Source: an uncultured Mycoplasmatota bacterium (GTDB lineage: Bacteria; Bacillota_I; Bacilli_A; RF39; UBA660). Taken from it: 37,495 bases of DNA. The notes beneath the pieces are model-generated. The model ran no database searches. It was given only the letters and a program-made list of their open reading frames with translations, and was not told the DNA's origin. The translations under genes and the position numbers were made by a program. Shown here piece by piece: positions 4,432 through 6,454 of this stretch (positions within the stretch are counted from its first letter, which is position 1; every line of letters begins with the position of its first letter). The DNA is taken from assembly GCA_948467605.1 (NCBI GenBank), contig CAOKET010000016.1, forward strand, positions 1 through 37,495, written 5' to 3'.

Positions 4432-4460
4432 TTACATCAAAAAATATTTTATGCTATAAT
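4432..4460 (+). promoter_or_regulatory. promoter of the MATE-kinase fusion
   Basis: TTACAT (4432-4437), 17 bases, TATAAT (4455-4460), with TG at 4452-4453 making an extended -10. About 17 bases then lead to the AGGAGG RBS, so the leader is short. Confidence 0.7.
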
Positions 4461-4489
4461 GAATTGGCTTGAAAGTAGGAGGTAAAGTC

Positions 4490-6454
4490 GTGAAGGAATT
4501 AAATTTAGGTAAAGAAAAAATAAGTAAGTTGATTTTAGCATTCTCGCTTCCTTGTGTAATAAGTATGTTAATTAATTCAATTTATAATATTGTCGATCAA
4601 ATATTTATTGGTAAAGGAGTAGGAACGCTTGGAAATGCATCAACAAATGTAATATTTCCATTAATAATAATATTTAATGCCACTGCTGGCTTAATTGGTA
4701 ATGGGGCATCTGCTAATATGTCTTTAAAACTTGGAGAAGGTAAAAAGGAAGAGGCAAGTAAAAGTATTGCACAAGCCATTATATTAACATTAATCGCATC
4801 TATAATCTTATTTGCTATATCATATATATTCTTACCGCAACTTGTATATATGTTTGGATGTACTAAAAATGTTTACCAATATGCCATTGATTATGGAAGA
4901 ATAATTATTATTGGTGCTCCATTTATGATAACATATTCTGCCTTATCAAATATCATAAGAGCAGATGGTTCACCAAAATACTCTATGATAATGCTAGTAA
5001 TAGGAGCAATTATTAATATTATATTAGATCCAATATTTATATTTATCTTTGATATGGGTGTAAAGGGAGGTGCAATTGCAACTGTAATTGGACAAGTTGT
5101 TTCATTTGTTATCGCTTTACTTTATCTTAAAAGAATAAAGTCAGTTAAACTTACTAAAAATGATTTTAAACTTGATAAAAATATATTTAGAATATTATCT
5201 TTGGGATTATCTTCGTTTATTACCCAATGTACAATTTTAGTATTATTTGTGTTTATGAATAATATTATGACAAAGTATGGAGCAGAGACTAAATTTGGTG
5301 CTGATATACCACTATCTGTATATGGAGTAATATCTAAAATAAATAGTTTATTTATATCAACTGTACTTGGTGTTTCAATAGGAGCACAACCTATTATTGG
5401 ATTTAATTATGGATCAGGAAATGAATTGCGTGTAAAAGAAACCTTAAAAAAGGTTTTACAAGTAAACTTTATTGTTGGAATAATATTTAATATTTTATTT
5501 GTTTTATTTCCTAAACAAATTGCAGGTGTATTTATTTCTAAAAATGATCCAAGTTACGAATTATTTATAGAGTTTGCTAATTTAATGTGTCATACATTCT
5601 TATTAGTATGTTCTCTAAATGCCCTAGAAATGACCACAAGTATTACTATACAATCATTAGGTAATGTTAAAAAATCAACTGCTGTATCATTCATTAGACA
5701 AATTTTACTTTTAATACCTATTTCTTTATTCTTATGTATAGTACTTGATAAAGGAATTTATGGGGTCTTATATGCTGGTGCTATTTCAGATATATTATGT
5801 TTTATTATAACAATATTTATATTTAGATCAGAGTATGTAAAACTAGGTAAGTTTGTAAAAACTAAAGATCAAGACAAATTGGAATTTTTAAATAATAATA
5901 AAAATATTAACTTTGATAAAGTTATAACTATTTCACGTGAATATGGTAGTGGTGGAAGATATGTTGCAAAATTACTTGCAGATATGCTAAATATTCCATG
6001 TTATGATGCTGAAATAATTGACCATACTGCTTTGGAATCTGGTTTTACAAAAGAATTTGTAGAACAATCAGATCAAATTAAGAAAAACTTTTATATACTT
6101 GATGATAAGATGTTTATTGCAGAGACAAAGGTTATTAAAAATCTAGCAAAAACTCCATGTGTTATAGTAGGAAGATGTGCTGATTATATATTAAAGGCAA
6201 ATAAAAATGTTATTAATATATTCTTATATAGCGATGATGATTCAAAACAAAAACGTGCGATTAAGTATTATGGTCTAAATAAAAATAATGCTAAGAAGCA
6301 AATTAGTAAAATAAATAAAAATCGTGCAAAACATTATGAATATTATACAAATAGAAAATGGAAGGATTTAAGTAATTACGATATCATATTAAATGTGGAT
6401 AAGTGTGGAGTAGAAGGTACAGCAAAAAATATTTTTAATATTTTAACTAAATAG
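4490..6454 (+). CDS. MATE-family efflux transporter fused to a cytidylate-kinase-like domain
   Basis: About 654 residues in one uninterrupted frame. Residues 1-~455 are a MATE (multi-antimicrobial extrusion) transporter: twelve hydrophobic segments, opening with LILAFSLPCVISMLINSIYN, VDQIFIG in the first loop and YSMIMLVIGAIINIILDPIF mid-protein, as in DinF/NorM-type MATEs. After a short charged linker, residues ~473-654 are a cytidylate-kinase-like P-loop domain of the type found as free-standing proteins: ISREYGSGGRYVAKLLA (phosphate loop) near 480 and CVIVGRCADYIL near 557. The start is GTG 4490, 7 bases after AGGAGG 4477-4482; an in-frame TTG at 4469 lies upstream of the SD. MATE pumps use Na+ or H+ gradients, so a cytoplasmic nucleotide-binding tail is not expected to power transport; its role (sensing, regulation or an unrelated kinase) is open. 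Confidence 0.9.
   Translation: MKELNLGKEKISKLILAFSLPCVISMLINSIYNIVDQIFIGKGVGTLGNASTNVIFPLIIIFNATAGLIGNGASANMSLKLGEGKKEEASKSIAQAIILTLIASIILFAISYIFLPQLVYMFGCTKNVYQYAIDYGRIIIIGAPFMITYSALSNIIRADGSPKYSMIMLVIGAIINIILDPIFIFIFDMGVKGGAIATVIGQVVSFVIALLYLKRIKSVKLTKNDFKLDKNIFRILSLGLSSFITQCTILVLFVFMNNIMTKYGAETKFGADIPLSVYGVISKINSLFISTVLGVSIGAQPIIGFNYGSGNELRVKETLKKVLQVNFIVGIIFNILFVLFPKQIAGVFISKNDPSYELFIEFANLMCHTFLLVCSLNALEMTTSITIQSLGNVKKSTAVSFIRQILLLIPISLFLCIVLDKGIYGVLYAGAISDILCFIITIFIFRSEYVKLGKFVKTKDQDKLEFLNNNKNINFDKVITISREYGSGGRYVAKLLADMLNIPCYDAEIIDHTALESGFTKEFVEQSDQIKKNFYILDDKMFIAETKVIKNLAKTPCVIVGRCADYILKANKNVINIFLYSDDDSKQKRAIKYYGLNKNNAKKQISKINKNRAKHYEYYTNRKWKDLSNYDIILNVDKCGVEGTAKNIFNILTK

What the first reader, a model, noticed from the sequence alone, without database searches (positions are those of the whole stretch)
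4490..6454. MATE transporter fused to a cytidylate-kinase-like domain
A full-length MATE pump (~455 residues) runs in frame into a complete P-loop kinase-like domain (ISREYGSGGR, CVIVGRCADY). MATE pumps are ion-driven and need no ATP, so the soluble tail implies a regulatory, sensing or nucleotide-modifying role coupled to efflux. The domain join is clean and no frameshift separates the parts.
Basis: partly seen in the sequence, partly recalled or inferred. Interest (0 to 1): 0.58.

Follow-up and report, generated by a model that had tools for sequence, protein, structure and literature searches.

The report
Efflux pump with kinase-like tail
A gut bacterium's drug-pump protein carries a kinase-shaped tail; the pair is common in gut bacteria, but the tail lacks the lysine that such kinases use, so it more likely senses something than acts as an ordinary kinase.

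Summary
One 654-aa frame (4490-6454, GTG start after AGGAGG) joins a complete MATE transporter to a complete Cytidylate_kin2 domain. It is no assembly accident: 68 of 80 kept relatives in public genomes have the full in-frame fusion. Two-gene MATE-kinase pairs occur in Lachnospira, Roseburia, Prevotella and Phocaeicola. Fused or paired MATEs do not form one clade (p-AU 5e-40), so the link formed or was reshuffled repeatedly. The same domain is also fused to DUF6198 membrane proteins (recurrent) and, once each, to a Na/H exchanger-type and a cytosine/purine-type transporter. 'Complete P-loop kinase' needs correction: the Walker A lysine is absent in 169 of 169 domains, while other residues (R483, G561, R562, R612) are nearly invariant and selection is purifying. 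I favour a regulatory ligand-sensing domain gating the pump; an unusual kinase is the main rival. No functional paper on the fusion was found in my searches.

The parts
4490..6454 (+). CDS, 654 aa: MATE transporter fused to C-terminal Cytidylate_kin2 domain (GTG start)
   Evidence: translate, Pfam, NCBIfam
4455..4460 (+). TATAAT, possible -10 box of the gene's own promoter
   Evidence: read directly from sequence; not tested
4477..4482 (+). AGGAGG Shine-Dalgarno sequence for the GTG at 4490
   Evidence: read directly from sequence
4490..5839 (+). MATE transporter part (about residues 1-450); TM1 Asp36 aligns with the BH2163 (DinF-BH) aspartate that is Asn in 5c6n
   Evidence: Pfam/TIGR00797, PDB sequence matches, fold match to PfMATE and DinF-BH
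5840..5914 (+). flexible linker (about residues 451-475; pLDDT under 50 at 455-472)
   Evidence: AlphaFold model
5921..6403 (+). Cytidylate_kin2 (PF13189) domain, residues 478-638
   Evidence: Pfam, genome search, fold match 3hdt Z 22.3, 3fdi Z 21.5
5936..5959 (+). P-loop-like motif R483-E-Y-G-S-G-G489-R490; Gly489 stands where kinases have the Walker A lysine
   Evidence: alignment with 4 canonical Cmk; 169-domain tally
6170..6175 (+). G561-R562, counterpart of the Gly-Arg of the Cmk GRD motif (Asp not kept: Cys here)

Best explanation
The gene encodes a DinF/PfMATE-type ion-coupled exporter whose cytosolic C-terminus carries a Cytidylate_kin2 domain. The domain is most likely a ligand-sensing regulatory module: its lysine-less P-loop and conserved arginines (R483, R562, R612) hold a phosphorylated ligand such as a nucleotide, and binding, passed on through the short flexible linker, opens or closes the transporter. 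Shown here: the fusion, its spread and repeated formation, the kinase fold, the missing Walker A lysine, and purifying selection on both parts. Inferred: ligand binding, its identity, the gating step and the exported substrate.
For: Fusion in 68 of 80 kept loci; two-gene MATE-kinase operons in named strains, gap 13 nt in Lachnospira eligens and Roseburia sp. 831b, 11-nt overlap in Prevotella F0039 and 41-nt gap in Phocaeicola massiliensis. Fused or paired MATEs rejected as one clade (p-AU 5e-40); fused kinase domains as one clade rejected more weakly (p-AU 0.021); one kinase clade (support 100/99) spans two deep MATE lineages. The same domain is C-terminal on other membrane proteins with no shared substrate: DUF6198 (L200 plus L211, L212, L213, L215; L214 with a stop inside), Na_H_Exchanger (L201), Transp_cyt_pur (L202); a regulator fits all of these better than a substrate-modifying enzyme. 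Walker A Lys 0 of 169. dN/dS of the kinase part 0.04-0.15 in the pairs where dS could be estimated (25 pairs run). In the sampled host family the fusion is independent of canonical Cmk (3 of 21 against 12 of 77, Fisher p = 1.0). MATE TM1 aspartate kept.
Against: No ligand or effect on transport is shown by any search. Strict conservation of arginines and of the P-loop shape also fits an enzyme with unusual chemistry. The exchanger and cytosine/purine fusions are single cases (1 of 71 and 1 of 70 family genomes; no second NCS1 fusion among the listed matches from 391 genomes), so the general-module argument rests on MATE and DUF6198. Free-standing copies show no common neighbour (87 neighbours of 23 loci), so most copies of the domain act away from transporters.
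Confidence: 0.5

Rival explanations
1. The tail is an active but atypical kinase (an arginine standing in for the lysine) that phosphorylates the exported compound, a nucleotide or the pump itself, coupling modification to efflux.
For: CMP kinases, shikimate kinases and gluconokinase are the nearest folds after the two family structures, and chloramphenicol phosphotransferase is in the list (Z 12.1). Basic residue at 490 in 151 of 169 (R 99, K 52), R483 in 168, R562 in 163, R612 in 166. One fusion partner is a cytosine/purine-type permease.
Against: Walker A Lys absent in 169 of 169 and no Ser/Thr preference at 491; partners with unrelated substrates do not suggest a shared acceptor.
Confidence: 0.25
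2. The tail is a structural part: it aids folding, dimerisation or localisation of the pump and binds nothing important.
For: Flexible linker; separate-gene pairs could form complexes.
Against: Many of the nearly invariant positions lie at the P-loop and the Gly-Arg and Arg sites, as expected for a binding site rather than a scaffold.
Confidence: 0.15
3. The tail supplies the missing CMP kinase of this reduced genome.
For: Canonical Cmk (PF02224) was not found in the window's genome, and only 15 of 98 family genomes have a strong match.
Against: No association between the fusion and Cmk absence; 65 of 98 genomes lack both; Clostridia keep several copies of the domain together with matches of Cmk type; Walker A Lys absent.
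Confidence: 0.05
4. Chance or assembly join without function.
For: A minority of copies are broken by frame shifts or stops.
Against: Recurrence across many genomes, purifying selection and paired operons.
Confidence: 0.02

Closest known systems
DinF-BH (BH2163, PDB 4lz6, 5c6n, 5c6o) and PfMATE (3vvn and others)
   Same: MATE part aligns along its length (best E 6e-62) with the same fold and the TM1 aspartate kept
   Different: These chains end after the membrane part (440-499 residues); no C-terminal domain
PDB 3hdt (putative kinase, Clostridium symbiosum) and 3fdi (Eubacterium ventriosum)
   Same: Same family and fold (Z 22.3 and 21.5; 37% and 35% identity)
   Different: Free-standing 223- and 201-residue chains; described only as putative kinase or uncharacterized protein
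Bacterial CMP kinase (Cmk; 2h92, 1kdo)
   Same: Same P-loop kinase fold (Z 14.3 for 2h92), Gly-Arg motif and a late arginine kept
   Different: No Walker A lysine, no GRD aspartate, and the roughly 30-residue stretch that Cmk has in mid-domain is absent
Transporters with cytosolic regulatory domains (CBS, RCK and similar; recalled, no call)
   Same: Idea of a soluble C-terminal sensor on a transporter
   Different: The domain here is a kinase fold, and the transporter is a MATE pump

Membership tests
MATE efflux transporter (TIGR00797, PF01554) | Score over the curated cut-off | tested here: met
   200 bits against 147.4; 144.4 against 24.9
MATE efflux transporter (TIGR00797, PF01554) | MATE fold | tested here: met
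   Foldseek best matches 3wbn, 4mlb, 6hfb, E about 1e-17, TM-score on target 0.83-0.88
MATE efflux transporter (TIGR00797, PF01554) | Ion-coupling TM1 aspartate | tested here: met
   Asp36, invariant in 53 of 53 fusions, aligns with the Asp of 5c6o that is Asn in 5c6n; its coupling role is recalled
MATE efflux transporter (TIGR00797, PF01554) | Substrate export | not testable with these tools
   needs transport assay
Cytidylate_kin2 (PF13189) | Score over the gathering cut-off along the whole profile | tested here: met
   159.9 bits against 28, profile 1-176
Cytidylate_kin2 (PF13189) | Same fold as the solved members | tested here: met
   3hdt Z 22.3 rmsd 1.4 over 158; 3fdi Z 21.5 rmsd 1.6 over 156
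Canonical CMP kinase | PF02224 or TIGR02173 over cut-off | tested here: not met
   No PF02224 row at E up to 1; TIGR02173 36.4 bits against 102.1
Canonical CMP kinase | Walker A lysine | tested here: not met
   Gly489; Lys in 4 of 4 canonical Cmk rows, in 0 of 169 domains of this family
Canonical CMP kinase | CMP phosphorylation | not testable with these tools
   needs assay
Regulatory sensor domain of a transporter | Binds a ligand and changes transport | not testable with these tools
   no ligand data; inferred from conservation and recurrent fusion

The most novel reading that the evidence does not exclude
Cytidylate_kin2 is a general plug-in sensor for membrane transporters in gut Bacillota and Bacteroidota: a kinase fold that lacks the catalytic lysine and has been attached again and again, as a fused tail or as a partner gene, to MATE pumps of several lineages, to DUF6198 proteins and occasionally to other transporters, tuning them to a nucleotide-like signal.
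Probability: 0.35. Interest if true: 0.72.

Novelty: new variant of a known kind. Interest (0 to 1): 0.55.

Why it matters
MATE pumps are usually treated as simple ion-driven exporters without built-in control. A conserved soluble tail, made repeatedly, suggests that gut bacteria regulate efflux by an intracellular signal, and it gives a functional lead for a domain that many Clostridia carry in several copies and that is known only as 'cytidylate kinase-like'. The Lachnospira, Roseburia, Prevotella and Phocaeicola gene pairs give named strains in which to test it.

Tried and rejected
Housekeeping CMP kinase: rejected by lack of association with Cmk absence and by the missing lysine.

Genome-context clue from free-standing copies: 87 neighbours of 23 loci scanned; no family in more than 4, so no guilt by association there.

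Papers: the terms Cytidylate_kin2, PF13189 and 'cytidylate kinase-like' gave 3 papers. I looked for passages in four papers (in PMC7806268 the term was not in the main text), none about the fusion. In PMC9848294 (passage only) a Fusobacterium nucleatum cytidylate kinase-like gene is listed in a table of expression changes, with a close locus number to an RND permease gene; a lead, not followed. Bile link: led nowhere, that hit was canonical Cmk.

Limits. Match tables were cut, so fusion frequencies outside the own family are not given. The first trees were quick ones. Rows were thinned by identity. Dropped rows: three truncated MATEs (L040, L048, L058); two very long rows (L130, L109); six rows (L139, L140, L157, L160, L132 as long branches; L040, broken). 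In one search, 25 pairs were run and dS was saturated in some. Of the 21 family genomes counted as fused by frame length, 12 were examined by domain. Proteins with the domain first and an extra tail (L191-L196) or an unassigned N-terminal part (L197, L198, L217, L218) were not resolved. No membrane topology prediction was run.

Full report
What is there. The frame 4490-6454 encodes 654 residues without a stop. A GTG start follows AGGAGG, and a TATAAT lies at 4455-4460, so the gene may have its own promoter. Pfam finds MatE (two stretches) and a full-length Cytidylate_kin2 domain at residues 478-638; TIGR00797 is over its cut-off. Neighbours are a RhuM-Fic protein upstream and a GrpB protein downstream, with no obvious link. 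The genome (1.38 Mb, 44 contigs, 91% complete) has no second PF13189 match and has other MatE matches, among them a 457-aa frame.

Recurrence. In the genome collection 575 of 592 candidate stretches encoded a relative; 80 were kept. Of these, 68 hold the whole fusion in frame; L090 and L095 hold two adjacent genes; L048, L058 and L069 end at a contig end; L040, L061, L064, L066, L067, L089 and L094 are broken or stop early. In the window's own family 21 of 98 sampled genomes have a PF13189 match in a frame of 499 aa or more; the 12 that I examined by domain carry MATE. The nearest relatives are unnamed Bacilli and Clostridia assemblies. Among plasmid records 6 of 260 matched records cover at least 80% of the query. 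The annotated ones that I opened are MATE/cytidylate kinase-like pairs in Lachnospira eligens and Roseburia sp. 831b. Frames read from Prevotella F0039 and Phocaeicola massiliensis show the same gene order. Other two-gene pairs: L086 and L100 (4-nt overlap); kinase-like gene first in L198 and L209.

Repeated formation. A careful tree of 37 MATE rows rejects the fused and paired rows as one clade (p-AU 5e-40). The fused proteins L149 and L152 lie with the paired L086 MATE on a branch (support 100/100) far from the window's clade, and L156 lies with unfused rows. The kinase-domain tree of 40 rows places fused domains in four well-supported places and rejects one fused clade at p-AU 0.021. The domains of L149, L152 and L155 group (100/99) with domains attached to the other MATE lineage (L153, L087, L103), which points to shuffling of the domain between pumps. 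Loss after a single old fusion cannot be excluded for part of the pattern.

Other partners. In samples of Clostridia, frames longer than a free-standing copy were opened. Pfam shows DUF6198 plus Cytidylate_kin2 in L200 and again in L211, L212, L213 and L215; L214 has the same order with a stop inside, and L157 has DUF6198 pieces upstream in a broken frame. L201 is Na_H_Exchanger plus the domain and L202 is Transp_cyt_pur plus the domain; both are single cases in their sampled families, and no second NCS1 fusion was among the listed matches from 391 genomes.

The kinase-like site. Aligned with four canonical Cmk proteins of the host family, the domain has Gly where they have the Walker A lysine, in 70 of 70 fused, 28 of 28 free-standing and 4 of 4 paired domains. 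Over all 169 domains collected, that position is Gly in 168 and Ala in 1; R483 is Arg in 168, residue 490 is Arg or Lys in 151, G561 is Gly in 166, R562 is Arg in 163 and R612 is Arg in 166. A stretch of about 30 residues present in Cmk is absent, and the Asp of its GRD motif is mostly Cys or Ala. dN/dS of the domain is 0.04-0.15 where it could be estimated (25 pairs). The model of the domain (pLDDT 91) matches 3hdt (Z 22.3) and 3fdi (Z 21.5), then CMP kinases (2h92 Z 14.3), gluconokinase and shikimate kinases. The site is therefore preserved but not canonical.

The pump. The MATE part is closest by sequence to DinF-BH (E 6e-62) and by fold to PfMATE. Asp36 is invariant in 53 of 53 aligned fusions and aligns with the aspartate that is asparagine in chain 5c6n. 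The linker at 455-472 is of low confidence. By general knowledge of MATE pumps both ends are cytosolic, so the tail should be inside the cell (recalled, not tested).

Not a CMP kinase for the host. PF02224 was not found in the window's genome, and strong matches occur in 15 of 98 family genomes, but the fusion does not follow that loss: 3 of 21 fusion genomes and 12 of 77 others have Cmk.

Mechanism. The reading that accounts for most of the evidence is a regulatory ligand-sensing tail that gates the pump. Fusion, recurrence, fold, missing lysine and selection are shown; ligand, gating and substrate are inferred. An atypical kinase is the main rival.

Novelty. The domains are known families, and the fusion exists in public genomes (the annotated two-gene form is named MATE family efflux transporter and cytidylate kinase-like family protein). 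Searches of the held papers found no study of the fusion; subscription journals are mostly not held, and domain-architecture databases were not available. I call it a new variant of a known kind, a transporter with a soluble control domain.

Noticed in passing
window genome G000 and its family: Canonical CMP kinase (PF02224) gives a strong match in only 15 of 98 genomes of this reduced-genome family; how the others phosphorylate CMP is open. Diverged 211-215 aa kinases (G395, G413, G200) may replace it.
   Followed up: partly
L200, L211, L212, L213, L215: DUF6198 membrane protein fused to Cytidylate_kin2 in several Clostridia genomes.
   Followed up: partly
L201:2395-4197; L202:2707-4836: Na/H exchanger-type and cytosine/purine permease-type proteins with a C-terminal Cytidylate_kin2 domain, one case each.
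   Followed up: partly
L191-L196: Proteins of 321-362 aa with a Cytidylate_kin2 domain first and about 130-170 further residues; no second domain over its cut-off in the two scanned (L191, L194).
   Followed up: no
L140:4576-12155: A diacylglycerol-kinase-like gene and ABC exporter genes next to a free kinase-like gene and a MATE-kinase fusion, all on one strand.
   Followed up: no
window:3424-4362: RhuM-family protein with a C-terminal Fic/Doc domain directly upstream of the fusion gene.
   Followed up: no
phage records H13-H24: 18 phage records matched the kinase-like domain; the 12 listed are unannotated records from human faecal samples.
   Followed up: no
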